A stretch of 45,755 nt of DNA from Lachnospiraceae bacterium (GTDB lineage: Bacteria > Bacillota > Clostridia > Lachnospirales > Lachnospiraceae), in contig JAFUNC010000003.1 of the NCBI GenBank assembly GCA_017473115.1, positions 1-45,755 of the forward strand, in the 5' to 3' direction. The translations under genes were made by a program, and so were the position numbers. This document shows, in pieces, positions 8,794-45,324 of this stretch. Below the pieces are notes generated by a model, which made no database searches, had not been told where the DNA came from, and saw only the letters and a program-made list of their open reading frames with translations. The stretch's first letter is position 1. The number at the start of each line of letters is the position of its first letter.

Positions 8794-9981
8794 ATGATTT
8801 GTAATAAATGTGGTGCGACCTGCGCGGATGATTTGAATTTCTGTGAAAAGTGCGGAAACTCTCTGCAAGAGCAGAAAGTAGGCACTGATGTGATGAAAAC
8901 CTCAGTGCAGGAAACTGATGTGCCCCAAAGAGAAAATGTATCTGCAAATCAAAATGATACAAAAAAAGGAACAACGAAAACCGTTATTATAATTGCGGTT
9001 ATTGTAGTTATCTTTTTTCTGGCACTTGTTTTCTTGCTTGTGGGTGCGGGAATCATTGTTTTGGTTGCGACGAGTTCGTCAGATTCGCAGAGTGAGGGCG
9101 CTATGATAGCCGAGGATAGTCAAAACGAGGAACGGGATGTGAACTTAAGCAATCTTAATGTCGGTGATATTGTAGTGCTTGGTGTATATGAGCAGGATGG
9201 AAATTCTTCCAACGGCGCTGAGCCTATCGAATGGGATGTTATCGCAGAGGAAAACGGCAGATATCTTCTTTTATCCCACTATGTATTAGAAAGCAAACCT
9301 TATGATAACGGTATGGCAGATGATACGGTAAGTGCCAATGAAAGTGCTAACGCAGGCTTCTGTACCTGGGAAACATCTACTGTACGCAGTTGGTTGAACG
9401 GAGAGTTCTATAGCACTGCTTTTAATATGGAGGAACAGCAGTATATTTGTATGGTAACGAATACGACAGGGGACTGGGCCGAAATTAATGACGGAACTAT
9501 GGGTACCGACGGATATTGGGATGGAGGACTTGGCGGTGGCGACACGCAGGATAAGGTATTCTTGCTCAGCATTGAGGAAGTCCGAAAATATTTCCGTGAT
9601 GATATCATACCCGTAACACTTCCGAGAACCGGCATCATAATACCGCAGTTATTGGTATCGCCTACTGAGTATACAATGGAAGTAAGCGACAGGGAATTTT
9701 ATGGAACACTTAGTGACTTTAATCCTTATGCAAGACTGAATGCGGAGGGCTATGACGAGGCAGATACGGTTTGGAATGATTATTATTACGGAAATGTACA
9801 TGAGGATTATATTAATAACGGATATTACTCATGTTGGGGGCTTAGAAGTCCGGGATGTTATGTAGATAACGCGTCATTTGTAGAAATGAAGATGGATGGA
9901 AAGCCGGGGATATTTGATGCAGACCCCATTACCATGCCGGAAACCGGTATCCGACCGGCTATCTGGGTAGAGTGTGACTAA
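8794..9981 (+). CDS. Zinc-ribbon membrane protein with DUF6273-like domain
   Basis: A 395-residue protein beginning 12 bases after the previous gene, with AAGGAGG-like sequence before the ATG. Residues 1-24 are a zinc ribbon with CNKCG and CEKCG. One membrane segment lies near residues 62-92. From about residue 115 the protein matches the DUF6273 type: a GDIVVLGVYEQDGN start, PIEWDVI, TVRSWLNGEFY, later WGLRSPG, and a final ETGIRPAIWVE. The domain is commonly found on Clostridia surface or secreted proteins and has no defined activity that I know of. The pairing of an inner zinc ribbon with an outer domain suggests a protein that reports across the membrane or anchors at it; this is inference. 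Confidence 0.83.
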   Translation: MICNKCGATCADDLNFCEKCGNSLQEQKVGTDVMKTSVQETDVPQRENVSANQNDTKKGTTKTVIIIAVIVVIFFLALVFLLVGAGIIVLVATSSSDSQSEGAMIAEDSQNEERDVNLSNLNVGDIVVLGVYEQDGNSSNGAEPIEWDVIAEENGRYLLLSHYVLESKPYDNGMADDTVSANESANAGFCTWETSTVRSWLNGEFYSTAFNMEEQQYICMVTNTTGDWAEINDGTMGTDGYWDGGLGGGDTQDKVFLLSIEEVRKYFRDDIIPVTLPRTGIIIPQLLVSPTEYTMEVSDREFYGTLSDFNPYARLNAEGYDEADTVWNDYYYGNVHEDYINNGYYSCWGLRSPGCYVDNASFVEMKMDGKPGIFDADPITMPETGIRPAIWVECD

Positions 9982-9995
9982 AGAGGAGAAGAAAG

Positions 9996-11459
9996 ATGAG
10001 CGAACAGAAAGAAAAGAAAAATGGTAAGGCCAATTATAAACTAATAGCCATTGTTGCAGGAATATTATTGCTTCTGTTTTTGGGCATTGTTCTTATTGTA
10101 GGTATTGTACTTGCAGTTGTTTTATTGGGAAATAAAAGTGATTCCGATAGCAGCCAGGGAGGAGGCTTATTTGGAGGAGCAGAGGAATCCACCGGCAGTT
10201 ATTGGGATGAAAGCATTCGTGTTGGTGATGTGGTAGAGTTCGGTACCTATGAGCAGGATGGTAATACCGGAAACGGTGCAGAGCCCATTGAATGGGTGGT
10301 AGTCGACAAGGATGGTGATAATTATTGCTTAATAAGCCGTTATGTTATTGATTGCCTGCCTTATGACGATGGCACCGGTCAGAATTCGGATTCCTCCGGC
10401 TTGGCTCATGAAGGTCTTGTATATTATGAGAATGCTTATATCAGAAAGTGGATAAATGATTCTTTTGTGCCGGAAGCGTTCGGAGATAAGGAAATGCAAT
10501 ATATTTTACCGGTATCCGTAAAGGAAGACGGGATTACTGCCATCAACGGCAATACCTATGCAACTGATTATGCGTTTATTCCAAGTTATAGCGAGATTGA
10601 AGAGTTCTTCGGAGAGACCGGCTGGTTAGGAATCAACGGTCAGTGGATATGCCCGCCTACTTCATATGCAAAGGGAGAGGGTTGTACTTACGTAACATCA
10701 ATGGATTTATTAGATTCCTGGAATTCTGTTCAGCCGGAATCGATGCAATTTACTTCGGAGGCAATTTACAATCCGAGTTGTTTTGAGACGATTACACAGG
10801 GAGCAACGGATGAAGATTATATGATGCAGGGCGAATTTGCCGTATATTGGGTCAGAGATCGAGTATACGATCAGCAGGTTGCAGCGGATAATAGTTTTGT
10901 TGTTCTTGCCGATGGTGCATTGGGTTATAAAGCGATGTATCAATCATATGGTGTACGTCCGGCAATTTATGTTACGATTACAAATCCGACCGCTTCAGAA
11001 GGTGAAATGTCCGAAGGACAGCCTGCAAAAGATTTTTTAACGGCATATAGCGGAACGACGTATTATACCAAAGAGAATGAATACGGTCAACAAGAGTCAA
11101 TGTGGATCGATGCCGCGCAAATTCATTTCTATATTTGCAGTTACGGGTTAACAAACGATATTGAAGAGGCTTCTTACCATGGAGCATTAAAATGCTTTGA
11201 CGGAAGTTTCGACATTCGCAATTTTACATATTATGAGATGGACGGTAAAGAATATTTTGTCAGTGAAAGCGATTATTTTAAATTAATGTATGATTCCGAT
11301 GAGCAAAAGTGGACAACCTACTCAAATTCTCCCAGTGTAATAGCCGCAGCCGAAAAATATGGAATGAGTGGAAACGGCGGTGCGATGGGATATGAATATC
11401 ATTCGGAAGAGGATATATATGATGAAGACGGATGGGTTATATTGTTTGAGTATTATTAA
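9996..11459 (+). CDS. Membrane-anchored DUF6273-like protein with a second C-terminal domain
   Basis: A 487-residue protein, the last of the three-gene set, starting 14 bases after the previous stop with AGAGGAGAAG before the ATG. It lacks a zinc ribbon; the N-terminus is a short Lys-rich cytoplasmic tail followed by a membrane segment near residues 16-45. A DUF6273-like domain follows (GDVVEFGTYEQDGNTGNGAE, AYIRKWINDSF, YGVRPAIYVTI at its end, about residues 70-330). Residues about 345-460 hold a domain resembling the C-terminus of the 7813 protein. It thus combines the outer domains of its two neighbours, which suggests domain shuffling within the locus. Function unknown. Confidence 0.82.
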   Translation: MSEQKEKKNGKANYKLIAIVAGILLLLFLGIVLIVGIVLAVVLLGNKSDSDSSQGGGLFGGAEESTGSYWDESIRVGDVVEFGTYEQDGNTGNGAEPIEWVVVDKDGDNYCLISRYVIDCLPYDDGTGQNSDSSGLAHEGLVYYENAYIRKWINDSFVPEAFGDKEMQYILPVSVKEDGITAINGNTYATDYAFIPSYSEIEEFFGETGWLGINGQWICPPTSYAKGEGCTYVTSMDLLDSWNSVQPESMQFTSEAIYNPSCFETITQGATDEDYMMQGEFAVYWVRDRVYDQQVAADNSFVVLADGALGYKAMYQSYGVRPAIYVTITNPTASEGEMSEGQPAKDFLTAYSGTTYYTKENEYGQQESMWIDAAQIHFYICSYGLTNDIEEASYHGALKCFDGSFDIRNFTYYEMDGKEYFVSESDYFKLMYDSDEQKWTTYSNSPSVIAAAEKYGMSGNGGAMGYEYHSEEDIYDEDGWVILFEYY

Positions 11460-34995: not shown

Positions 34996-35034
34996 TATTG
35001 AATGTTGAAAATACGATTATCATTTTAGTAAGTA

Positions 35035-35190
35035 TAAAAGAAACTGCTTTCGGATTTGCTTAAGGACCGTTTGGTGTGCGTTGGTGCTTAGTGATAAATT
35101 GAATGCAATTCAATTTGAACTTAGCATCTGTTACATACACAATCGAGCGAGAGCGGGTACGTAGCAAAGCGAAAAGCAGTTTTTCTATAG
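35035..35190 (+). repeat. Divergent palindromic element (copy D)
   Basis: The stretch folds on itself almost end to end: outer arms AGAAACTGCTTTCG (35039-35052) and CGAAAAGCAGTTTTTCT (35170-35186), further matched arms TTTGCT / AGCAAA, GTGTG / CATAC, and a tip of AAATTGAAT-GCA-ATTCAATTT. It shares with copy A the pieces ACCGTTT, GTTACAT and CGAGCG..GAGCGG in the same order. It ends 14 bases before the HAD gene start. Confidence 0.75.
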
Positions 35191-35204
35191 ATAAGGAAAG
35201 TAAA

Positions 35205-35909: not shown

Positions 35910-35918
35910 ATTTGACTC

Positions 35919-36129
35919 GATTTGTTTATGTGTCGAAAATAAAAACAATATACGTGGATATTTTTATTCCATAAAGAACCGTTTTCGACTGTGTCAGCAC
36001 TTAACGAGCAGAAATGTAATGCACTGCGAGTTTAGTACTGTTACATCAGTCGAACGAGCGGGAGCGTGTTCTGTTGGAATATAAAATAATCCACGTAATG
36101 ATATTAAAGTAAATTCACAGAAACAAACC
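35919..36129 (+). repeat. Palindromic element, copy A
   Basis: A 211-base element filling the gap between the HAD gene and cca. Far arms GATTTGTTTATGTG (35919-35932) and CACAGAAACAAACC (36116-36129) pair at 12 of 14 positions. Near arms TACGTGGAT (35951-35959) and ATCCACGTA (36089-36097) pair perfectly. The inside pairs ATTCC/GGAAT, AGAAC/GTTCT and CGACTG/CAGTCG. In the minus direction the core contains CAGTCGAAAACGGTTCTTT, identical to copies B and C. Confidence 0.93.
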
Positions 36130-36159
36130 GCAGATACACTATTTGAAAGGAGGTATCCC

Positions 36160-37482
36160 ATGAAAATAAACATGCCGCAGGAAGTAAAAGAGATTATCGC
36201 AACGTTACAAGCGAATCATTTTGAAGCTTATGCCGTGGGCGGATGTATCCGGGACTCGATTTTAGGACGTGAACCGAATGATTGGGATATTACAACCTCC
36301 GCATCTCCTGAAGAAGTTAAGGCGTTGTTTCGCCGGACCATTGATACCGGTATTGAGCACGGCACCGTAACGGTTATGGTGGATAAAACAGGTTACGAAG
36401 TGACCACATACCGTATTGATGGTAAGTACGAGGACGGAAGACATCCCACGGAAGTTACATTTACAAGGAATCTGAAAGAAGATTTGCTGCGCAGGGATTT
36501 TACCATTAATGCCATGGCGTATAACGATACGGACGGACTGGTGGATATTTTCGGCGGAATGGAAGATATTGAAAGTAAGGTAATCCGATGCGTGGGAGAC
36601 CCGAAGGCCCGTTTTACGGAGGATGCCTTGCGTCTTTTACGTGCAATTCGCTTTGCGGCACAGCTGGGATATGCCATTGAAGAGAATACCAGAGAGGCTA
36701 TGAAAGAGATTGCCGGCAATCTTAGTAAAATCAGTGCCGAGCGTATACAGGCAGAACTGGTAAAAACCGTAATTTCGCCCAATCCTATGCTTTTAAAAGA
36801 TGCTTATGAATTGGGTCTTACCAAGATTTTCATGCCGGAATTTGATTTGGCGATGGAGACCGAGCAGCATAACCGTCATCACCAATATACCGTTGGAATG
36901 CATTCTCTGGTGGCAATGGAACATATCCGTGCCGATAAAATCCTTCGCCTTACCATGTTGATGCACGACTTGGGCAAGCCCCGTTGCATTACGACGGATG
37001 AGGAGGGAATTGACCATTACTATGGACATCCGGTCGTATCAGCGCAAATTTCAACGGAAATTTTACAGCGTCTGAAATTTGATAATGATACCATTCGTAA
37101 AGTGAGAATTCTGGTGCGCTATCATGATGAGAGAATTGCATCCGGCGTCAAATATATGCGTCGCGCAGTGGCACGCATCGGAGAAGAAGCGTTTCCGGAA
37201 TTGTTTGAAGTGCAGGAAGCGGATATTTCGGCACAGAGTGATTATAAAAAAGAAGAAAAAATTGCCACATTGGAGGCAAATCGCAGAGATTATGAAGAGA
37301 TACTCGAGCGGAAACAGTGTGTTTCCAAGGCCACTTTGGCGGTAAACGGCAAGGATTTGATTGATTGCGGAATGAAACCAGGCAAGGAAATCGGATTGGT
37401 TTTGGATGCCATGTTAAAAGACGTCATCGAAGAACCTTCCCATAATGAGAAAGAATATCTTTTAAAGAAATTCCTGCCCTGA
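36160..37482 (+). CDS. cca: CCA-adding tRNA nucleotidyltransferase
   Basis: A 440-residue class II nucleotidyltransferase. The catalytic region is GGCIRDSILGREPNDWDI, with the Asp pair DWD; then RRDFTINAMAY, RLLRAIRFAAQLGY and AERIQAEL follow as the other family motifs. An HD domain carries LMHDLGKP at about residue 270. The enzyme adds or repairs CCA at tRNA 3' ends, needed here because the tRNA-Phe gene lacks CCA. A perfect AAAGGAGG precedes the ATG. Confidence 0.94.
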   Translation: MKINMPQEVKEIIATLQANHFEAYAVGGCIRDSILGREPNDWDITTSASPEEVKALFRRTIDTGIEHGTVTVMVDKTGYEVTTYRIDGKYEDGRHPTEVTFTRNLKEDLLRRDFTINAMAYNDTDGLVDIFGGMEDIESKVIRCVGDPKARFTEDALRLLRAIRFAAQLGYAIEENTREAMKEIAGNLSKISAERIQAELVKTVISPNPMLLKDAYELGLTKIFMPEFDLAMETEQHNRHHQYTVGMHSLVAMEHIRADKILRLTMLMHDLGKPRCITTDEEGIDHYYGHPVVSAQISTEILQRLKFDNDTIRKVRILVRYHDERIASGVKYMRRAVARIGEEAFPELFEVQEADISAQSDYKKEEKIATLEANRRDYEEILERKQCVSKATLAVNGKDLIDCGMKPGKEIGLVLDAMLKDVIEEPSHNEKEYLLKKFLP

Positions 37483-37487
37483 TTTTA

Positions 37488-37516
37488 ACATACTTTTCCA
37501 AAGGTACTCATACAAT
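37488..37516 (+). promoter_or_regulatory. Candidate sigma-E sporulation promoter
   Basis: ACATACT at 37488-37494, 14-base spacer, and CATACAAT at 37509-37516. The -10 is an exact match to the mother-cell sigma-E pattern and the -35 is near. It stands 98 bases before the CotS-like gene. Confidence 0.6.
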
Positions 37517-37614
37517 AACATAGCGAAAGACGTGAATTGGTCTTGGAGTTCGGAGAAGAGAATTCCACAGCCGTCTTTGCGCAGTGTAAGTATGACAGCC
37601 GGGAGGGAAAGAAA

Positions 37615-38607
37615 ATGAATGACAGGGCCATCAGCCTATTGGAAAACTATGATTTTACGGTGATAAAAGCCCATAAGGTGCGGGGGGCCTTTGTGTGCGA
37701 AACGGATAAAGGACTGAAAATTATGAAAGAATATCAGGCACCGGTATCCAAATTAGCGTTGATGGATGTGTTGCTTCGCGGAATGTCCGACCGGTCTGCC
37801 GTTTTTGTGGATACTCTTGTGGCGGATCAGGAAGGAAACTTTATTTCCTATGACCGTGACGGTATGGGATATGTGGTAAAAGATTATTTTGAGGGCCGGG
37901 AATGTTCGCCCAGAGACACCGGGGATTTAAAACTTGCCATGCAGGCTTTGGCAATGCTTCATGAAGGGCTTTACTGGCCTGAGGATGAGATGCCCAAGGG
38001 ACTGCACCGGTTTGATTTGAAGGAAGATGTGGCCAGACAGAATAAAGGCCTTAAGAAAATCCGCTCTTTTATCAGAGGACGGGGTTGTAAAAGTGAATTC
38101 GAACTGGCATTACTGGATGCATACAATCTGTTTCTTGCGCAGGCATTGCGGGCGGAAGAACGGATTGCAAAAGAAGATTTCAGCGACTTTTATGCCGTGG
38201 TGGAGAAGAAAAAGCAGTTTGCCCACGGAGATTTTCAGTACCACAACGTACAGTTCGGAAAAGAGCGTTCTGCCATCCTTCATTTCGAGAAATGTCAGTG
38301 GGACAGCAGGGTAAGAGACGTGGCACTGTTTCTTCGTAAAACCTTGGAAAAAGCAGACTGGGATGTCGGGCTCGGAAGCAGCCTTTTGCAGGAATATGAA
38401 GCAATCAATCCTTTGTCGGACAGTGAAAGAAGGCAACTGTTTTATCGTTTGGCTTACCCGGAGAAATTCCGCAAAATTGCTAATTTTTATTATAATTCCA
38501 ACAAAGCCTTTTTAACAGGGCAGTATCTGTCAAAACTGGAGAATATTTTACGGTTGGAGAAGTCAAAGGACGTTTTTTTGCATAACGTATTCGATGATGT
38601 GATTTAA
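37615..38607 (+). CDS. CotS-like spore coat protein of kinase fold
   Basis: A 330-residue aminoglycoside phosphotransferase-like protein. The ATG at 37615 follows GGGAGGG; an earlier in-frame start has no site. The catalytic loop reads AHGDFQYHNVQFG. The metal-binding position, normally an I-D-F-D in CotS, reads LHFEKCQWD, so the metal Asp is replaced and activity may be lost. The following VRDVALFLRK is typical of CotS. Such proteins belong to the spore coat. The upstream sigma-E-like promoter at 37488 agrees with a sporulation role. Confidence 0.82.
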   Translation: MNDRAISLLENYDFTVIKAHKVRGAFVCETDKGLKIMKEYQAPVSKLALMDVLLRGMSDRSAVFVDTLVADQEGNFISYDRDGMGYVVKDYFEGRECSPRDTGDLKLAMQALAMLHEGLYWPEDEMPKGLHRFDLKEDVARQNKGLKKIRSFIRGRGCKSEFELALLDAYNLFLAQALRAEERIAKEDFSDFYAVVEKKKQFAHGDFQYHNVQFGKERSAILHFEKCQWDSRVRDVALFLRKTLEKADWDVGLGSSLLQEYEAINPLSDSERRQLFYRLAYPEKFRKIANFYYNSNKAFLTGQYLSKLENILRLEKSKDVFLHNVFDDVI

Positions 38608-38705
38608 ATGCTTCGCCGGTAATGACAAAAGTGCTGTTGCACAATGCGCGAATGTGATAGAATGCAGTATAACAAGTGAAAAAATGTCGCCTATGGAGGG
38701 CTGCA

Positions 38706-40232
38706 ATGAAGAAGTACTTAAGTATTATTCTGATGTTTCTGCTGTGTTTTAGTCTGGCTTCCTGCCAACAGGAGAGTGCACCTGTGGTGGAGCCGCCTAC
38801 AGAGGAACAGCCAAGTGCAAATTACATATATGAAGACCGGGTTATTCTTGTCACAGCGGATGCCGGAGAGCAAAGCATTACGTTCCAGAACTTGGAGACG
38901 GGGCTGCGCTACACCTTAAACTATGACGGTGTTACGTACTTTTATGATAAGTACGGCAGTGCCATGTCCGCAAAGCAGGTTCGTTGCGGTGTAATTGCGG
39001 ATATTACTTTTGATAAAAGTTCCAAGAAGTTATTGTCGCTGAATGTGTCGCCGGATTATTTTGTGTATTCCGATATTACCTTTGAGGAATTTATCAAAAA
39101 TGAAAGTCGTCTTATGTTTTTGAACGAAGAATATAAGTTGGATGATTTTCTTGCAATTTCGGACGGGAATATGAATCTGGATAAAATGGAACTTGCCAAG
39201 GGAGATGTAATTACCATCTGCGGCAAGGACCATACGATTTACAGTATTTATCTGCAGAGCGGTCACGGATACCTGCGTCTGGAAAATGATGAGTATTTCA
39301 TAGGTGGCTGGATTGAAGTGGGGAATAAAATCATCCGTTCCGTATCCGAGGATATGTTGCTTACGGTGCCGGAGGGCTCGTATGAAGTTCTGGTCAGCAA
39401 TGACGGTATTACCGGTGTAAAAAGCGTTACCATTGGCCGTAACCAGGAAGTAACCCTCGATTTGGGTGATATTGATGTGGAAAAGAAATTCGGCAATGTT
39501 TTATTTGTGTTGAATCCTTCCGATGCGGAATTATTTGTGGACGGAGCCAAGGTGGATACGGGTGCTCCCGTGTCTATGGAATACGGTATCCATCAGTTGA
39601 TTTGCAGGGCGGAAGGATATGAAACCACCGCAAGTTATATCAAGGTGGGTGAGCCGTCGGCCTCCATTACATTGACGCTGACCAAAGAGGCTGATGATGA
39701 CGAAGACGAAGATTCCTCAGAGGAAGATAGTTCGGAGAGTAGCAGTCAAAGTTCTGAAAGCAGCAGTCAGTCATCGGAAAACAATAGTGCGACTTCGGAA
39801 AATAACAGTTCTGAAAATAGCAGTCAAAATTCTTCCGAGAGCAGCAGCCAAACATCTTCGGAAAATCATTCCGACGCCAACGGAACTTCCGAAAACAGTA
39901 ATCAGTCATCTTCGGAGAACAGCACGGAATCCAATACGGACAGTTCGGAAAACAGTAGCCAGCCATCTTCCGAAAATACCGGTGTAACCGGCAATTCCGG
40001 TACTGCAAGTACCACTGCTAAAATGTACGTGGACGGGCCTGCCGGTGTCGAAGTATATGTAGACGGAAGTTATGTGGGTATCGCTCCGGTTTCCTTTACC
40101 AAACCTCAAAGCGGCGTTGTTATTACCTTACGTAAAACCGGCTACCAAACCAGAAGTTACACCCTCCAATTAGATGATAACGACAAGGACGTAAATTATT
40201 CCTTCTCTGAATTAATAGAGATTGGGCAGTAA
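38706..40232 (+). CDS. PEGA-domain lipoprotein with Ser/Glu-rich linker
   Basis: A 508-residue predicted lipoprotein. ATG 38706 follows GGAGGG; a GTG upstream is rejected. The signal peptide ends LASC with lipidated Cys20. A beta-rich region follows, then PEGA-type domains at about residues 262-320 (PSDAELFVDGAKVDTGAPV) and 438-503 (GVEVYVDGSYVGIAPVSF). A further PEGA-like stretch (LTVPEGSYEVLV) precedes them. A linker at about residues 332-428 is made almost wholly of Ser, Glu, Asn and Gln (SSESSSQSSENNS). This looks like a surface stalk that spans the wall; the linker may be glycosylated. Function unknown. Confidence 0.85.
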   Translation: MKKYLSIILMFLLCFSLASCQQESAPVVEPPTEEQPSANYIYEDRVILVTADAGEQSITFQNLETGLRYTLNYDGVTYFYDKYGSAMSAKQVRCGVIADITFDKSSKKLLSLNVSPDYFVYSDITFEEFIKNESRLMFLNEEYKLDDFLAISDGNMNLDKMELAKGDVITICGKDHTIYSIYLQSGHGYLRLENDEYFIGGWIEVGNKIIRSVSEDMLLTVPEGSYEVLVSNDGITGVKSVTIGRNQEVTLDLGDIDVEKKFGNVLFVLNPSDAELFVDGAKVDTGAPVSMEYGIHQLICRAEGYETTASYIKVGEPSASITLTLTKEADDDEDEDSSEEDSSESSSQSSESSSQSSENNSATSENNSSENSSQNSSESSSQTSSENHSDANGTSENSNQSSSENSTESNTDSSENSSQPSSENTGVTGNSGTASTTAKMYVDGPAGVEVYVDGSYVGIAPVSFTKPQSGVVITLRKTGYQTRSYTLQLDDNDKDVNYSFSELIEIGQ

Positions 40233-40243
40233 ATTTTTTGGGA

Positions 40244-40467
40244 GTTCTAATTCGTTTATTGGTATTATAATTATATAAAACTGCGTGAATTATTTTGTAT
40301 TCCAACAGAACACGCTCTCGCTCGTTCGCCTGATGTAGCAGTACTAAACTCGCAGTGCATTTCATTTCTGCTCGTTAAGTACTGACACAGTCGAAAACGG
40401 TTCTTTATGGAATAAAAATATTCACGCAGTCTTACATTGCACAAAGTGCAAATAAACGAATTAGAAC
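40244..40467 (-). repeat. Palindromic element, copy B
   Basis: A 224-base element filling the gap before mazG, in the opposite orientation to copy A. Far arms GTTCTAATTCGTTTATT (40244-40260) and AATAAACGAATTAGAAC (40451-40467) pair perfectly over 17 bases. Near arms ACTGCGTGAAT (40280-40290) and ATTCACGCAGT (40420-40430) pair perfectly over 11 bases. The core (40295-40415) is nearly identical to A and C. A small hairpin TTGCAC-AAA-GTGCAA lies at 40437-40451. Confidence 0.95.
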
Positions 40468-40494
40468 GCGAAACGCAAATATAAGGAGCATTCT

Positions 40495-41205
40495 ATGGTA
40501 AACAAAGAAAAATATACGTATGATGATTTTCTGGAGATAATTAAGGCGTTAAGAGCGCCGGACGGTTGTCCATGGGACAGGGAGCAGACCCATGACAGCC
40601 TTCGTCCCTGTATGCTGGAGGAAGCGTATGAATTTTTGTCTTCCGTGCGTATTTTGGAGGAAACCGGCAGTGCGGACAATATGTGCGAGGAACTGGGCGA
40701 TTTGCTTCTGCAGATTGTGATGCATGCGGAGATTGCCGACGAAGAAGGTCTTTTTGCCATGGAAGATGTGGTGAATGAAATCAGCCGTAAAATGGTACGT
40801 CGCCATCCTCACGTATTCGGGACTACGGAAGTTTCCGGCGTATCCGATGTTTTAAACAACTGGGATGATATTAAGAAGAAAGAAAAGGAAGGCAAGACTT
40901 GGATTGAGTCGCCTCTGCGGGAGATTCCGGCAGAACATCCTGCTCTTACCAGAGCTTCCAAAGTACTGAAAAAGGTCAATAAGGTATACGAGCCGATTCT
41001 TCATTACGAAGCATCTTTGGACAAGTTAGGAGCAAGTATTGAGACTTTAAAACAGCAGGGCGGGGATATTTCCCAAGAAGCGTTGGAGAGAGAACTGGGC
41101 AAAATGCTGATGGAACTTTCCGCGATTGCGGCAGAGAAGAAAATCTATTCCGAGCAGTTGCTGATTGATTGCGTGGAAGAAACCATTCGGAAGTATGAAA
41201 AATAG
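40495..41205 (+). CDS. mazG: MazG nucleoside triphosphate pyrophosphohydrolase
   Basis: A 236-residue MazG protein. Conserved segments: ALRAPDGCPWDREQTHDSL, LEEAYEFL and EELGDLLLQIVMHAEIA, which carry the Mg-binding acidic residues, and RRHPHVFG. It hydrolyses NTPs or dNTPs to monophosphates, cleaning the nucleotide pool. Bacillus YabN has an extra N-terminal methylase domain, which is absent here. TAAGGAG precedes the ATG. The mazG-hup-rqcP order matches the spoVT-yabN-yabO region of spore formers. Confidence 0.94.
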   Translation: MVNKEKYTYDDFLEIIKALRAPDGCPWDREQTHDSLRPCMLEEAYEFLSSVRILEETGSADNMCEELGDLLLQIVMHAEIADEEGLFAMEDVVNEISRKMVRRHPHVFGTTEVSGVSDVLNNWDDIKKKEKEGKTWIESPLREIPAEHPALTRASKVLKKVNKVYEPILHYEASLDKLGASIETLKQQGGDISQEALERELGKMLMELSAIAAEKKIYSEQLLIDCVEETIRKYEK

Positions 41206-41258
41206 CATAGAACGGGAATAAAAAGACGAATGTAGGATGTTATGTAACCAAAAGTTAA

Positions 41259-41284
41259 AAAACCCCGAAAAATCGTGGTTTTGT
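41259..41284 (+). terminator. Weak terminator-like hairpin after mazG
   Basis: Stem AAAACCCCGA / TCGTGGTTTT with loop AAAA and one mismatch. The T stretch is short, so termination may be partial. Confidence 0.5.
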
Positions 41285-41295
41285 CCAAGTTTTTC

Positions 41296-41341
41296 TTGAC
41301 AAATTACGGAAAAACAACTATAACTAGTATAGTGGTTGTTT
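41296..41341 (+). promoter_or_regulatory. Strong promoter of hup overlapped by a dyad
   Basis: TTGACA at 41296-41301, 17-base spacer and TATAAC at 41319-41324. Overlapping the -10 and start region is a dyad: AAACAAC (41312-41318) with GTTGTTT (41335-41341), and ACTATA (41317-41322) with TATAGT (41328-41333), centred on ACTAGT. It could be an operator, perhaps of HU itself or another regulator. Confidence 0.78.
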
Positions 41342-41396
41342 ACACGACCAAGTTAACTAAAAAACATCCTATAAAAGTAAGAGGAGGAGTTCAATA

Positions 41397-41672
41397 ATGA
41401 ACAAGACAGAATTAATCGCAGCTATGGCTGATCAGGCAGGATTATCTAAGAAAGATGCAGAAAAGGCTTTAAAGGCTTTCACAGACATCGTAGCAGATGA
41501 ATTAAAGAAGGGCGAAAAGATCCAGTTAGTTGGTTTCGGTACTTTCGAAGTTGCTGAAAGAGCAGCTAGAGACGGTAGAAATCCTTTAACAGGTAAGGCT
41601 ATGAAGATTCCCGCTTCTAAGGCTCCTAAGTTCAAAGCTGGTAAGGCTTTAAAGGATATGATCAACGCTTAA
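41397..41672 (+). CDS. hup: HU family DNA-binding protein
   Basis: A 91-residue nucleoid protein. MNKTELIAAMADQAGLSKKD at the start, GFGTFEVAERAARDGRNPLT for the arm with the conserved RNP, and the K-rich C-terminus are typical of HU. It bends and packs DNA as a dimer. GAGGAGG precedes the ATG. Codons are strongly biased, fitting high expression from its promoter. Confidence 0.97.
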   Translation: MNKTELIAAMADQAGLSKKDAEKALKAFTDIVADELKKGEKIQLVGFGTFEVAERAARDGRNPLTGKAMKIPASKAPKFKAGKALKDMINA

Positions 41673-41695
41673 TTGTAAGTTAGATTATGAATTCA

Positions 41696-41723
41696 AAAGA
41701 CCGACTTTATGTCGGTCTTTTTT
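41696..41723 (+). terminator. Intrinsic terminator after hup
   Basis: Perfect 10-pair stem AAAGACCGAC / GTCGGTCTTT, loop TTTAT, then further T. Confidence 0.93.
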
Positions 41724-41793
41724 ATACCGAAATATTATCGGTTGAGAGTGGTGTTATTTTGCTCGGAATATACTATTTTTATGGAGAACAACG

Positions 41794-42033
41794 ATGAGAC
41801 TTGATAAATATTTAAAAGTGTCCAGATTAATCAAACGAAGAACCGTGGCCAATGAGGCCTGTGACGCGGGCCGTGTGACGGTGAACGGCAAAGTGGCCAA
41901 GGCATCCCAGGATGTGAAGGTAGGCGATAAAATATCCATCAAATTCGGGGATAAAACCGTGGATGCGGAGATTTTATCCGTACAGGAAACAGTTCGTAAG
42001 GAAGAGGCTAAGGATATGTTTCGGTATCTGTAA
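41794..42033 (+). CDS. rqcP: RqcP (YabO), S4-domain ribosome quality control factor
   Basis: A 79-residue S4 RNA-binding protein, MRLDKYLKVSRLIKRRTVAN then ACDAGRVTVNGKVAKAS, of the YabO/Hsp15 type. In Bacillus this protein (RqcP) works with RqcH in adding alanine tails to nascent chains stuck on the 50S subunit. Its location after mazG and hup and before the spore gene yabP is conserved. TATGGAG precedes the ATG. Confidence 0.93.
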   Translation: MRLDKYLKVSRLIKRRTVANEACDAGRVTVNGKVAKASQDVKVGDKISIKFGDKTVDAEILSVQETVRKEEAKDMFRYL

Positions 42034-42053
42034 AACAGTTGCGGAGGAGTATT

Positions 42054-42878
42054 ATGATTCATCAAACATTTCAAATTGCGGTTGAAGGTTCACAGCCAAA
42101 CACCAAACTGGTGACCTACCTGTTGGAACAGTCACCTGAAATTGCGGCACCGCCAAGACCGCTTGTGCTGATTTGTCCCGGAGGCGGTTATTCCTTTACC
42201 AGTGATAGAGAGGCGGAAGCAGTCGCGTTAAAATTTAATGCGGCAGGTTTTCATGTTGCGGTTCTGCGCTACAGTTGTGCGCCGGCAGTGTATCCCACTG
42301 CGCTTTGCGAGGTTGCCTACAGCGTGGCGCTGATTCGTCAAAATGCCGATGCATGGAATGTAAATCCGGATAAAATTGTAGTGCAGGGGGCTTCTGCAGG
42401 CGGCCATTTGGCGGCCTCCTATGCGGCCTTTTATCAGGAAGATTTCCTTGGAAAACTCACCGGACTGTCTGCCAAAGAACTTCGTCCCGCAGGGTTAATG
42501 CTTAGTTACCCGGTGATTACCTCCGGAGAATATGCGCATCAGGGCTCTTTTGAATGCCTGCTTGGGAAATCATATGCGGACTTAAAAGATGAGCCTTTGC
42601 TTCGCAAACTTTCTCTGGAAAAGGCGGTTCATAAGGATATGCCTCCTGTATTTTTGTGGCATACCTTCTGTGATACCACTGTCCCGGTGGAGAATTCACT
42701 CTTATTTGTGAGTGCATTAAAAGAAAAAAATATCCCCACGGAATTTCATATGTTTCCGCGGGGGGCTCATGGTTTGGGCCTTGCAAATCATCTTACGGTT
42801 ATGCACGATGGGTATGGCTTACAACCGGAATGTGAAATATGGATTGACCTTGCCATCACGTGGCTGTCTAATTTATAG
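42054..42878 (+). CDS. Alpha/beta hydrolase, esterase-like
   Basis: A 274-residue cytoplasmic esterase-like enzyme. ATG 42054 follows GGAGGAG. The oxyanion region is CPGGGYSFTSDREAE, the nucleophile elbow is QGASAGGHLAASYA, the acid lies in HTFCDTTVPVENSL, and the His in RGAHGLGLA. The set resembles bacterial acetylesterases active on acetylated sugars. It starts 20 bases after rqcP, so it probably shares its transcript, and it interrupts the usual rqcP-yabP adjacency. No signal peptide is seen. Confidence 0.9.
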   Translation: MIHQTFQIAVEGSQPNTKLVTYLLEQSPEIAAPPRPLVLICPGGGYSFTSDREAEAVALKFNAAGFHVAVLRYSCAPAVYPTALCEVAYSVALIRQNADAWNVNPDKIVVQGASAGGHLAASYAAFYQEDFLGKLTGLSAKELRPAGLMLSYPVITSGEYAHQGSFECLLGKSYADLKDEPLLRKLSLEKAVHKDMPPVFLWHTFCDTTVPVENSLLFVSALKEKNIPTEFHMFPRGAHGLGLANHLTVMHDGYGLQPECEIWIDLAITWLSNL

Positions 42879-42886
42879 AAGATACC

Positions 42887-43789
42887 CTATCGTATGGCCG
42901 GCGTATACAATCTTTTATCCAGGCCGTCAATGGTACATTCCAAGATATAAATCGGTTGATAGAAGCCTTTGGAGTCTACTTCATACGAAAGGAAAATATT
43001 GTTTACCACAATATGTTCGGGCTCGTGGGCAGGCTCATAGAGAAAGATGCCGTCAGCAATGCGCAGATAGGCTTCTTCTTCCGTAATAATGGGATATTCT
43101 TTGTAGACTTCGCCGTTTGGAACGATATACACGGGAGCGGTTTCTTCTCCCGCGTCAAAGGCAGTGTTACAGGTAACCGAGGCGGGATGGGCCCTCATGA
43201 TATGGTGGCATTGTAAGTTGCCCGGTTCCTGAAAATGATGCACGGTAAAAATACTGAAAAAAGCAACCGCAGTTATGATAAGCGGAAGTTGATACAGAAG
43301 AATCGGTTTGCCGGAAACCGGTTCTTTTTTGATTCTTTTATGAATAAAATCCGCCAAACGGTAGAATCCGTATCCAATCAGGGTTCCCAGCGTATTGTTT
43401 ATCAAATCATCGGTTTCAAAAATTCCCCGTCGAAGCACTAACTGGCTTACTTCAATCAGTAAACTGAAGGTCAGGCCGGCGAAAGCGGTGGGGCCGAATT
43501 TTAGGAATATTTTATGAAGATAGGGAAGAAGAAGCCCGAAAGGAACCATCATAAAAATATTCAAAATCAAGTTACGCCAACTCGCGTCTTCGTATTGATA
43601 CCAGGCTTCCATATAAGAATAAAAGGGCATCAGGCGGAAGAAATCGCTTTGATTGTTATAGCGCCCCAAAAGGGTAACGCCGAATACCATAAAATGATAG
43701 CCGGTAAATATAAGATAGAGCAGAATGTCCGGCAGAGACACTTTCTTTTGCTCTTTTGGATTTTTTGTATTCGAGTCCGCAGCACGCAT
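42887..43789 (-). CDS. VanZ family protein with C-terminal extension
   Basis: A 300-residue membrane protein on the minus strand, converging with the esterase (8 bases between stops). Membrane segments lie near residues 20-42, 73-92, 97-117, 130-147 and 168-185. The VanZ signature is visible as NLILNIFMMVPFGLLLPYL and LLIEVSQLVLRRGIFETDDL. A roughly 110-residue outer C-terminal part (AYLRIADGIFLYEPAHEPEH) is unusual for VanZ. VanZ proteins give low-level teicoplanin resistance in some hosts; chromosomal members have unknown roles. AAAGGATG precedes the start. Confidence 0.88.
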   Translation of the reverse strand: MRAADSNTKNPKEQKKVSLPDILLYLIFTGYHFMVFGVTLLGRYNNQSDFFRLMPFYSYMEAWYQYEDASWRNLILNIFMMVPFGLLLPYLHKIFLKFGPTAFAGLTFSLLIEVSQLVLRRGIFETDDLINNTLGTLIGYGFYRLADFIHKRIKKEPVSGKPILLYQLPLIITAVAFFSIFTVHHFQEPGNLQCHHIMRAHPASVTCNTAFDAGEETAPVYIVPNGEVYKEYPIITEEEAYLRIADGIFLYEPAHEPEHIVVNNIFLSYEVDSKGFYQPIYILECTIDGLDKRLYTPAIR

Positions 43790-43854
43790 AAATCTTCATC
43801 CTTTCGTGCTTTTTATTTTACGCCTGATGCCGTAAATAAGCAACAAAGATGTGT

Positions 43855-43883
43855 TCATATTTGTGTCGCCACGGGAATATAAT
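43855..43883 (+). promoter_or_regulatory. Candidate sigma-E promoter of yabPQ
   Basis: TCATATT at 43855-43861, a 14-base spacer and AATATAAT at 43876-43883. The -10 matches six of eight sigma-E positions. yabP is sigma-E-dependent in Bacillus, so the pattern fits. A sigma-A reading would need an 11-base spacer and is unlikely. Confidence 0.55.
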
Positions 43884-43906
43884 ATACAAGGTTATGGAGG
43901 TACGGT

Positions 43907-44203
43907 ATGGAAGATTTGAATTATGGCGGCAAAACCGGCAGGGCACATAAAGTAATGCTGATGGGACGTAAGACCTGCGGCTTAAACGGCATTGTGGATG
44001 TGCTGGCGTTTGATGTAAATGAAATGATTATGGAGACCGAGCAGGGAATGCTTATGATAAAAGGAAGTGAACTTCATGTAACCCGCCTTTCCCTGGAAAA
44101 GGGTGAAGTGGATTTGGAAGGCAGGGTCGACAGCCTTGTGTATTCCGATGTTTCTACGCCGGCAGCAAAAGCAGAAGGATTTTTTGGTAAACTCTTCCGT
44201 TAA
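43907..44203 (+). CDS. yabP: Sporulation protein YabP
   Basis: A 98-residue protein of the YabP/YqfC family (HKVMLMGRKTCGLNGIVDVL and YSDV near the end). YabP and YabQ are required for spore cortex formation in Bacillus and act in the mother cell. ATGGAGGTACGG precedes the ATG. The gene overlaps yabQ by one base. Its presence indicates a lineage that forms, or formed, endospores. Confidence 0.93.
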   Translation: MEDLNYGGKTGRAHKVMLMGRKTCGLNGIVDVLAFDVNEMIMETEQGMLMIKGSELHVTRLSLEKGEVDLEGRVDSLVYSDVSTPAAKAEGFFGKLFR

Positions 44204-44736
44204 TGGAAATAAGCGGTGAAATTTTAAATGAAATCAGACTGTTTGCCAATTCCGTAGTGCTCGGTGCGGGACTGACGTTTGTATATGACGGCTGGATAAT
44301 TTGCCGGAAAGTTTTTAAGCATAATACTTTTATGGTGTCTCTGGAAGACCTGAGTTTCTGGCTCTTTACCGCAATTGTGGTATTTCTTGCCTTGCGGGAG
44401 CAGAATAACGGGGTGTTGCGCTGGTTTCTTGTGGTAGGTGCGGGAATCGGCATGCTTCTGTATAAAAGCGGAATAAGTCGATTTTATGTAAATTACCTTA
44501 GCAAGGCAATACAACATCTTGTGGTTTACATAAAAAGAATAGCATATTTTGTATTTAAACCAATAAAAATTGCAAAAAAGCACGTAAATTCGGGCTTTTT
44601 GCAGGCAAATAATGGAATAAAAAAAGTTACCATAATGTTAAAAAATCGGTTGACGGTTTGCATAAAATGGTTTACAATTGCATTATGTAAACACAATGGA
44701 GAGAATGGTGATTTACATAACGAAGAGGAAACTTAG
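44203..44736 (+). CDS. yabQ: Spore cortex biosynthesis protein YabQ
   Basis: A 177-residue membrane protein overlapping yabP by one base (TAATG), indicating coupling. Membrane segments lie near residues 13-33, 44-62 and 70-88; a Lys-rich helical tail follows. FANSVVLGAGLTFVYDGWII and SLEDLSFWLFTAIVVF are the family blocks. YabQ is located in the forespore-surrounding membrane and is needed for cortex formation in Bacillus. The following gene is divIC, the conserved order. Confidence 0.92.
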   Translation: MEISGEILNEIRLFANSVVLGAGLTFVYDGWIICRKVFKHNTFMVSLEDLSFWLFTAIVVFLALREQNNGVLRWFLVVGAGIGMLLYKSGISRFYVNYLSKAIQHLVVYIKRIAYFVFKPIKIAKKHVNSGFLQANNGIKKVTIMLKNRLTVCIKWFTIALCKHNGENGDLHNEEET

Positions 44737-44750
44737 TGGGGGATACGCAA

Positions 44751-45062
44751 ATGGCTACACGGCGTAAAAAGGCTGCGTACCGTAAGAATCATCGCAATCG
44801 TACCGGTATCATTCTGGTAACGACTGTGGTTGCTCTTATGATGTTGGTGGTTGGTGTGCAGACACACCAGTTAAAACAGCAACAGAAAGCATACGCGGAA
44901 GAAGAACAATATTATATGGATTTGATTGCGCAGGAAGAAGCCAGAAGCCTTGAAATTGCGGAGTTTGAGAAGTATACTCATACAACGGCATATATCGAAG
45001 AAGTGGCAAAAGCCAAGTTTGGTCTTGTAAAAGACGGCGAAATCCTTTTTGTAGCAGAATAG
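44751..45062 (+). CDS. divIC: Septum formation initiator (DivIC/FtsB)
   Basis: A 103-residue bitopic protein. ATG 44751 lies eight bases after GGGGG; a GTG at 44736 overlaps the yabQ stop and is rejected. A basic N-terminal tail, one membrane segment (GIILVTTVVALMMLVVGV) and a coiled coil (LKQQQKAYAEEEQYY) are visible, with a C-terminal KAKFGLVKDGE motif. DivIC joins the FtsL/DivIB complex at the division septum. Confidence 0.95.
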   Translation: MATRRKKAAYRKNHRNRTGIILVTTVVALMMLVVGVQTHQLKQQQKAYAEEEQYYMDLIAQEEARSLEIAEFEKYTHTTAYIEEVAKAKFGLVKDGEILFVAE

Positions 45063-45069
45063 AATGTAC

Positions 45070-45096
45070 AGCCCGACAAATACGTCGGGCTTTTTT
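45070..45096 (+). terminator. Intrinsic terminator after divIC
   Basis: Perfect 8-pair stem AGCCCGAC / GTCGGGCT, loop AAATAC, then T5. Confidence 0.93.
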
Positions 45097-45100
45097 GTGC

Positions 45101-45305
45101 CACTATTTGTGTTTTGCAAGCGCGATGATGTATGGAGTATTTTATATTCCAAAAGAACGCGCTCGCGCTCGTTCGACTGATGTAGCAGTACTAAACTCGC
45201 AGTGCATTTTATTTCTGCTCGTTAAGTGCTGACACAGTCGAAAACGGTTCTTTCCGGAATAAAAATATCCATACATCGTGACGGAAGGAAAAATACAAAT
45301 CAGTG
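45101..45305 (-). repeat. Palindromic element, copy C
   Basis: A 205-base element, same orientation as copy B, beginning four bases after the divIC terminator. Far arms CACTATTTGTGTTTT (45101-45115) and AAATACAAATCAGTG (45291-45305) pair with one bulge and one G-U. Near arms GATGTATGGA (45127-45136) and TCCATACATC (45268-45277) pair perfectly. The core (45146-45260) is nearly identical to A and B, apart from a few base changes. No gene is seen within it. Confidence 0.93.
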
Positions 45306-45324
45306 AATTGGAACAAAAAACCGG

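What the first reader, a model, noticed from the sequence alone, without database searches (positions are those of the whole stretch)
35919..45305. Dispersed palindromic elements with compensatory changes in their arms
Copies A (35919), B (40244) and C (45101) share a nearly identical core of about 120 bases, including CAGTCGAAAACGGTTCTTT and CTCGTTAAGT. The outer arms differ completely in sequence between copies (TACGTGGAT, ACTGCGTGAAT, GATGTATGGA), yet within each copy the left and right arms are perfect complements. A second, far set of arms is also complementary within each copy. Ordinary terminal inverted repeats of a transposon would be the same in every copy. The pattern suggests either selection for a folded RNA or cruciform, or replication through a hairpin intermediate that rewrites one arm from the other. 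I do not recognise the family.
Basis: partly seen in the sequence, partly recalled or inferred. Interest (0 to 1): 0.85.

Follow-up and report, generated by a model that had tools for sequence, protein, structure and literature searches.

The report
Dispersed hairpin elements with rewritten arms
A gut bacterium carries about 46 scattered copies of a hairpin-forming DNA element whose centre is kept similar between copies while its two arms change freely yet stay complementary, which gives a natural test of how palindromes are maintained in genomes.

Summary
Copies A, B, C and a missed fourth (D, 35038-35186) belong to a family of 46 copies in this 2.23 Mb genome, found in 27 of 31 same-genus genomes and 25 of 295 of the order, all one family. 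No Rfam match at threshold. Pairing covaries: 44 of 50 pairs change on both sides, no shuffle of 500 as high. The core looks like a selected single-strand fold: GNRA loop in 212 of 221 rows, GU over AC. The arms do so less: unfitted counts give GU 29, AC 35 and 65, 42, although model-fitted alignments give 133, 42. Core sameness is largely explained by exchange: in 16 of 21 same-site comparisons the core is closer to a paralog than to its ortholog, the arms to the ortholog. Sites are polymorphic. Best reading: small non-autonomous hairpin elements, with a folded core exchanged between loci and arms kept palindromic largely by strand-symmetric arm-to-arm copying. The mobiliser is unknown; Y1 transposase is missing from several carriers.

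The parts
35914..36133 (+). Copy A, whole element including far arms (far arms imperfect)
   Evidence: (R1 hit 35934-36105 +)
35951..35970 (+). Copy A left inner arm (TACGTGGAT... to ATTCC)
35971..36075 (+). Copy A core; tetraloop GGGA in the 3' hairpin
36076..36097 (+). Copy A right inner arm
40244..40467 (-). Copy B, whole element; far arms are a perfect 17-nt pair
40280..40303 (-). Copy B inner arm (ACTGCGTGAAT... to ATTCC on + strand)
40304..40408 (-). Copy B core; tetraloop GAGA on the sense strand
40409..40430 (-). Copy B inner arm, other side
45099..45314 (-). Copy C, whole element (far arms imperfect)
45127..45150 (-). Copy C inner arm (GATGTATGGA... to ATTCC on + strand)
45151..45255 (-). 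Copy C core; tetraloop GCGA on the sense strand
45256..45277 (-). Copy C inner arm, other side
35038..35186 (+). Copy D, a fourth and more diverged copy not in the finding (R1 hit 35023-35191); absent from the same site in G027, present in G001

Best explanation
A family of small (about 150-260 bp), non-coding, dispersed hairpin elements of Lachnospiraceae. SHOWN: 46 copies here; a conserved core fold (a long hairpin and a short hairpin with a GNRA tetraloop, closed by a long stem); presence/absence differences between related species; cores resembling paralogs while arms resemble the same-site ortholog; arm mismatches with little or no strand preference in unfitted counts. INFERRED: the core is the recognition structure (as RNA or single-stranded DNA) by which an unidentified enzyme working in trans spreads the element. 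The arms need no particular sequence. They drift, and arm-to-arm template switching during replication (quasipalindrome correction) copies one arm onto the other from time to time, so each site ends with its own near-perfect palindrome. Gene conversion between copies overwrites cores but not arms.
For: Copy number and spread: (40 hits in G316). Fold: 44 of 50 pairs change on both sides, 47 of 50 in 106 rows from 80 loci of named genomes. Core selection: GNRA 46/46, 67/69 and 99/106 rows; GU:AC 41:6, 35:7, 50:26 over the whole core. Arms: in 18 same-site alignments one-sided changes GU 29, AC 35, other 76, compensated doubles 25 against about 4 expected, 10 of the 25 transversions; clean helix context in three sets GU 65, AC 42, other 74 beside 8,892 Watson-Crick pairs; control on 137 terminator-like stems GU 59, AC 24. 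Own-genome folding energies do not favour a strand (mean -89.6 sense, -89.2 antisense; sense better in 12 of 28). Core exchange: 16 of 21 same-site comparisons. Polymorphism. Template switching between inverted-repeat arms is a described mechanism (PMC8604942, passages read; PMC7202029, start of abstract in a search listing).
Against: Model-fitted alignments show a sense bias in the inner arms too: P1 GU:AC 17:7, 55:12, 61:23; the fitting favours GU, by how much was not measured. Arms of some GC-rich relatives carry sense GU in an unfitted count (L071 11:0, L070 7:1, L077 4:0). No mobilising protein was found and no target-site duplication was resolved. One-sided arm changes (140 of 866 pairs) outnumber compensated ones (25), so upkeep of the arms is partial. 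No bias to the G-rich replication strand (17 of 40, 20 of 46). Core orientation to the flanks is the same in all 20 same-site pairs listed that carry the element (strands), although template switching can also invert spacers. One core pair (P5, position 4) is C.A in 76 rows and never U.G, opposite to the sense bias. In 8 of 8 single-hit genomes the element lies between genes codirectional with its sense strand, which would suit a cis-acting RNA. Choosing the best of 45 paralogs favours the conversion reading somewhat, and selection may add to core sameness.
Confidence: 0.46

Rival explanations
1. A structured RNA family (trans-acting or cis-acting) selected as RNA along its whole length, arms included; copies are repeated RNA genes or leaders.
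For: Covariation throughout; GNRA in 212 of 221 rows, sense GU excess in the core and, in fitted alignments, in the inner arms; sense GU in arms of some GC-rich relatives; in 8 of 8 single-hit genomes both neighbouring genes run in the sense direction; in two species the element precedes the same RfbB-like gene with different arms (L365, L367).
Against: In the own genome gene orientation around copies is mixed (-- 16, ++ 13, +- 9, -+ 8 of 46), and in six further loci from genomes with more than one hit only 1 of 6 is codirectional (L372-L377). Unfitted arm counts give GU close to AC and few GU, while terminator-like stems in the fetched loci show the RNA bias. Promoters were not searched for.
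Confidence: 0.3
2. An ordinary MITE whose terminal inverted repeats have simply diverged; complementarity is residual and the core is young.
For: Ten of 46 copies score at least 8 of 11 with a GTCCCRATTTG-type end on both sides; presence/absence between species.
Against: Independent divergence would destroy complementarity; compensated double changes are about six times chance. Same-site copies in different species show that many sites are old while cores differ. No target-site duplication resolved.
Confidence: 0.12
3. A REPIN-like element moved by a REP-associated Y1 (HUH) transposase.
For: Dispersed, hairpin-forming, compensatory changes; [quoted passage not shown] Some carriers do have a Y1_Tnp gene (G001, G011, G012, G014, G316).
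Against: Y1_Tnp (PF01797) has no match in the carriers G000 (85% complete), G019 (74%), G027 (97%, 33 hits), G077 and G178 (100%, at least 9 hits each, where scoring stopped at 9); 5 of 14 control genomes rang. Here the centre is conserved and the ends vary, the reverse of REPINs. No strand bias relative to replication.
Confidence: 0.04

Closest known systems
REPINs (REP doublets forming hairpins) with RAYT transposases, PMC3116915 (passages read)
   Same: Short, dispersed, hairpin-forming, non-coding, compensatory changes in stem positions
   Different: In the passages the two ends are highly conserved (16-mers 71 bp apart) and the spacer varies; here the core is conserved and the arms vary, and the element is longer. 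No Y1 transposase in several carriers.
MITE-like small bacterial repeats (PMC2229807, start of abstract only; bcr1 of Bacillus cereus recalled)
   Same: Small, multi-copy, presence/absence between relatives
   Different: No constant terminal repeats and no resolved target duplication; arms specific to the site; cores exchanged between copies
Inverted-repeat arm homogenisation by template switching (PMC8604942, passages; PMC7202029, start of abstract) and actively maintained long inverted repeats of worms (PMC1803023, abstract)
   Same: Repeat structure better conserved than sequence; one arm copied from the other
   Different: In what I read these are separate loci without a shared core; here about 46 dispersed loci share one core fold
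Repetitive hairpin-forming elements of sponge mitochondria (PMC2800124, passages read)
   Same: Dispersed hairpin elements invading intergenic regions
   Different: The main text has no occurrence of 'compensatory'; no conserved GNRA core or core exchange in the passages read
attC folded recombination sites of integrons (recalled, not searched)
   Same: Function through a folded strand, sequence free but structure kept
   Different: attC sites flank cassettes in arrays with IntI; these copies are dispersed. IntI was not tested.

Membership tests
REPIN/RAYT | A cognate Y1 (RAYT/TnpA-REP) transposase in the genome | tested here: not met
   PF01797: no match in carriers G000, G019, G027, G077, G178; match in carriers G001, G011, G012, G014, G316 and in G025, G028 without R1 hits; 7 of 16 genomes in all; 5 of 14 controls rang
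REPIN/RAYT | Conserved ends, variable spacer | tested here: not met
   Conserved centre and variable ends in the alignments; arm against core identities
MITE | Constant terminal inverted repeats shared by copies | tested here: not met
   Only 10 of 46 copies score at least 8 of 11 at both ends with the commonest end motif
MITE | Target-site duplication | tested here: inconclusive
   Eleven sites read against relatives by eye; flanks too diverged or no duplication seen
MITE | Short, dispersed, polymorphic insertions | tested here: met
MITE | Autonomous parent transposon with the same ends | not tested
   No dedicated search was run
Any Rfam family | Match to a curated covariance model | tested here: not met
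   No hit over the element at gathering score in the window. At E up to 1 in 10 loci the only overlap is L023 1434-1673 with plant miRNA MIR2646, 27.5 bits against a gathering score of 245
Intrinsic terminator | Short GC-rich hairpin followed by a T-run in fixed orientation to the gene | tested here: inconclusive
   Long branched hairpin, orientation to genes mixed; T-runs were not counted and the terminator scan was not run
Cis-regulatory leader RNA | Fixed position and orientation relative to a gene class | tested here: not met
   Own genome 13 of 46 ++; six multi-hit loci elsewhere 1 of 6; but 8 of 8 in single-hit genomes, with differing Pfam families downstream
Self-cleaving ribozyme | Cleavage activity | not testable with these tools
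   No call bears on it

The most novel reading that the evidence does not exclude
A mobile element whose heritable unit is a folded core alone: the core is copied, as RNA or single-stranded DNA, from one resident hairpin into another, overwriting its centre and leaving the local arms, so the element spreads by core replacement rather than by cut-and-paste of fixed ends.
Probability: 0.15. Interest if true: 0.9.

Novelty: new variant of a known kind. Interest (0 to 1): 0.66.

Why it matters
Covariation is usually read as proof of a functional RNA. Here is a large natural data set in which stems covary strongly while the arms, counted without a model, carry few GU pairs and little strand preference, and the core carries more. 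It offers a practical control (GU against AC) for telling RNA selection from DNA-level palindrome upkeep, a multi-copy system for measuring arm-to-arm copying in natural genomes, and an element of Lachnospiraceae that no Rfam family describes.

Tried and rejected
Arms as pre-existing host palindromes into which the core inserted: rejected as the general rule, because at the L036 site the empty relative G001 lacks the arm sequences and G019 lacks them at the L087 site; partial overlap of outer arms with native flank at L044, A and L033 (by eye) remains suggestive only. A tRNA-derived arm in L076, suspected by eye: ARAGORN found no tRNA in L062-L085. Lagging-strand insertion bias: none. Y1 transposase: missing from five carriers, present in five others. 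Plasmid, phage and viral-contig carriage: no match. A gene neighbour shared by all single-hit genomes: none.

Counts replaced or trimmed. Whole-local-alignment arm count (GU 70, AC 114 in G000; GU 137, AC 142 in same-genus and one other) was replaced by stricter counts because it includes unpaired flank. A first ortholog count found no core limits in 6 of 18 pairs and left one near-identical pair out of its total; one search uses all 18, four of them with a short left flank. In one search opposite-strand shadow rows were dropped first (3 from A2, 6 from A3). One search included the 3 shadow rows; one search does not. One search used 97 of the 106 hits (hits cut off by a locus end or partial were left out). 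Searches used 80 of the 113 stretches.

Odds.

Literature: seven searches listed no paper that I recognised as describing this family. PMC8040213 (passages read) reports 250 palindromic candidate RNAs from human microbiomes; supplementary files are capped at 0 look-ups here, so an unnamed earlier listing cannot be excluded.
Full report
WHAT IS THERE. The inner arms are perfect complements within each copy; the far arms are perfect in B (17 nt) and imperfect in A and C. The B region folds far better than shuffles on both strands (z -7.0 and -11.5). A search of the own genome with the 114-base core gave 28 matches. A covariance model (R1) built from these gave 57 matches, of which 12 are opposite-strand shadows of the palindrome, leaving 45; one more appeared when the fetched loci were searched, giving 46 distinct copies. 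One of them, D, lies in the window at 35038-35186.

THE FOLD. In the sense orientation (A and D are +, B and C are -) the element reads: long stem P1 (the arms); P2; a long hairpin (P3, P5, P6) with recurring internal loops (a U.U mismatch, a tandem GA step, a two-base bulge); a short hairpin (P7) with a tetraloop; back through P2 to P1. On the 46 copies, 44 of 50 pairs change on both sides, 95.9% of cells pair (71.8% shuffled, 33-45% slid), and 0 of 500 shuffles reach the covariation score. On 106 rows from 80 loci of named genomes (80 of the 113 stretches) it is 47 of 50 pairs. These alignments were fitted to the model, so they lean towards it.

DISTRIBUTION. R1 matched 28 of 61 genomes: 27 of 31 of the same genus and one other of the same family. 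It matched 25 of 295 genomes of the order, all of the same family (stricter filters). That the window's own family is Lachnospiraceae is inferred from these titles and from L276, whose two hits match those of the G001 locus L104 in place and score. No match in viral contigs (exact pattern), plasmids or phages. No Rfam hit at threshold; at E up to 1 in ten loci the only overlap is a 27.5-bit match to a plant miRNA family with gathering score 245.

IS IT AN RNA? The core says largely yes for the sense strand. The P7 loop is GNRA in 46 of 46, 67 of 69 and 99 of 106 rows (a few rows occur in two sets), with position 2 never T among the GNRA loops. GU against AC over the whole core is 41:6, 35:7 and 50:26, in all 126:39; without the variable-length P3 and P3a it is 86:22 (fitted alignments). 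One pair contradicts this: P5 pair 4 is C.A in 76 rows, otherwise nearly always C-G or T-A, never T.G. Folding energies of 28 own copies do not favour either strand. The arms are less clear. Counted without the model, 18 same-site alignments (866 arm pairs) have one-sided changes GU 29, AC 35, other 76; compensated doubles 25 (15 transitions, 10 transversions) against about 4 expected; non-complementary doubles 10 (four of the 18 have a short left flank). In clean helix context across 46, 68 and 97 copies, GU is 65, AC 42, other 74 beside 8,892 Watson-Crick pairs, so GU is under 1%. Against this, the fitted alignments give inner-arm GU:AC of 17:7, 55:12 and 61:23, and some GC-rich relatives carry sense GU in an unfitted count (L071 11:0). 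A control on 137 terminator-like stems from the fetched loci gives GU 59, AC 24, other 24 beside 1,386 pairs, so counts of this kind can see RNA selection, although stem detection differs between the two.

WHY CORES AGREE AND ARMS DIFFER. Twenty-one same-site comparisons (18 distinct own copies) against G001, G019 and G027: in 16 the own core is closer by more than 0.02 to a paralogous core in the same genome than to the ortholog, while in all 16 the arms are closer to the ortholog, marginally in some; in 14 of 21 the same holds for the core in the other genome, of which only fetched copies were compared. Choosing the best of 45 paralogs favours paralogs somewhat; the arms are the internal control. 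Block replacement of P3 with its partner strand is visible in L035/L059 and L043/L104. So many sites are old, cores are exchanged, arms stay.

MOBILITY AND LOSS (read by eye). B is absent from G001, G019 and G027. A is absent from G019, reduced in G027, and in G001 a related element of another subfamily sits there. C is absent from G027; flanks in G001 and G019 could not be joined up. D is absent from G027 and present in G001. L036 and L044 are absent from G001 and G027; L033 is absent from G019 and G027 and present in G001; its neighbour (189718) is absent from G027 and present in G001 and G019. L052 is absent from G027 and L041 from G001. L087 is present in G027, absent from G019, and in G001 has lost its right half. 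Some absences are therefore deletions. Short hairpins remain at 'empty' sites B and L033 in relatives. No target duplication could be read.

WHAT MOVES IT. Unknown. Y1 transposase is missing from carriers G000, G019, G027, G077 and G178 and present in carriers G001, G011, G012, G014 and G316. Sense orientation is unbiased to the G-rich strand (17 of 40 in G316; 20 of 46 here). Flanking genes are mixed in the own genome, but codirectional in 8 of 8 single-hit genomes and 1 of 6 other fetched loci.

JUDGEMENT. I favour a small hairpin element with a selected core and arms kept palindromic largely by strand-symmetric copying (0.46), over a whole-length RNA (0.30). The step from near strand symmetry to template switching is inferred from the mechanism described in PMC8604942 (passages read).

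Noticed in passing
L227, L242, L256, L229, L209, L219, L279, L266, L217, L237 and others; own genome C2:189396(-)/189718(+): Close pairs of elements (under 600 nt apart, look-alikes merged) are divergent in 15 of 18 cases, tandem in 3, convergent in 0; two of the 15 are one site in two species. Beyond 600 nt there is no bias (14 pairs). Unexplained.
   Followed up: partly
L364-L371 (single-hit genomes): In 8 of 8 genomes with one hit the element lies between two genes codirectional with its sense strand; L365 and L367 share the site upstream of an RfbB-like gene but not the arms.
   Followed up: partly
L093-L100, and G001 at site A: A second subfamily with a different apical hairpin (loop like GTATTTT, no tandem GA step) sits in the same genome and, by eye, in G001 at the site of copy A.
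   Followed up: partly
site B in G001 and G019: A small hairpin ATAGGCGGATT-RTAT-AATTCGCCTAT sits where copy B is in the window; possibly a deletion footprint.
   Followed up: no
L269: A MAG titled Bacteroides sp. carries the motif; mislabelling or transfer not checked.
   Followed up: no
L077: Partial repeats of arm sequence downstream of the element, as if palindrome-mediated rearrangement had occurred.
   Followed up: no
window 9159-9251 and 10220-10312: A 93-nt direct repeat, 72% identical, inside two neighbouring ORFs (8794-9981 and 9996-11459).
   Followed up: no
window 45070-45096: A terminator-like hairpin with T-run ends just upstream of copy C.
   Followed up: no
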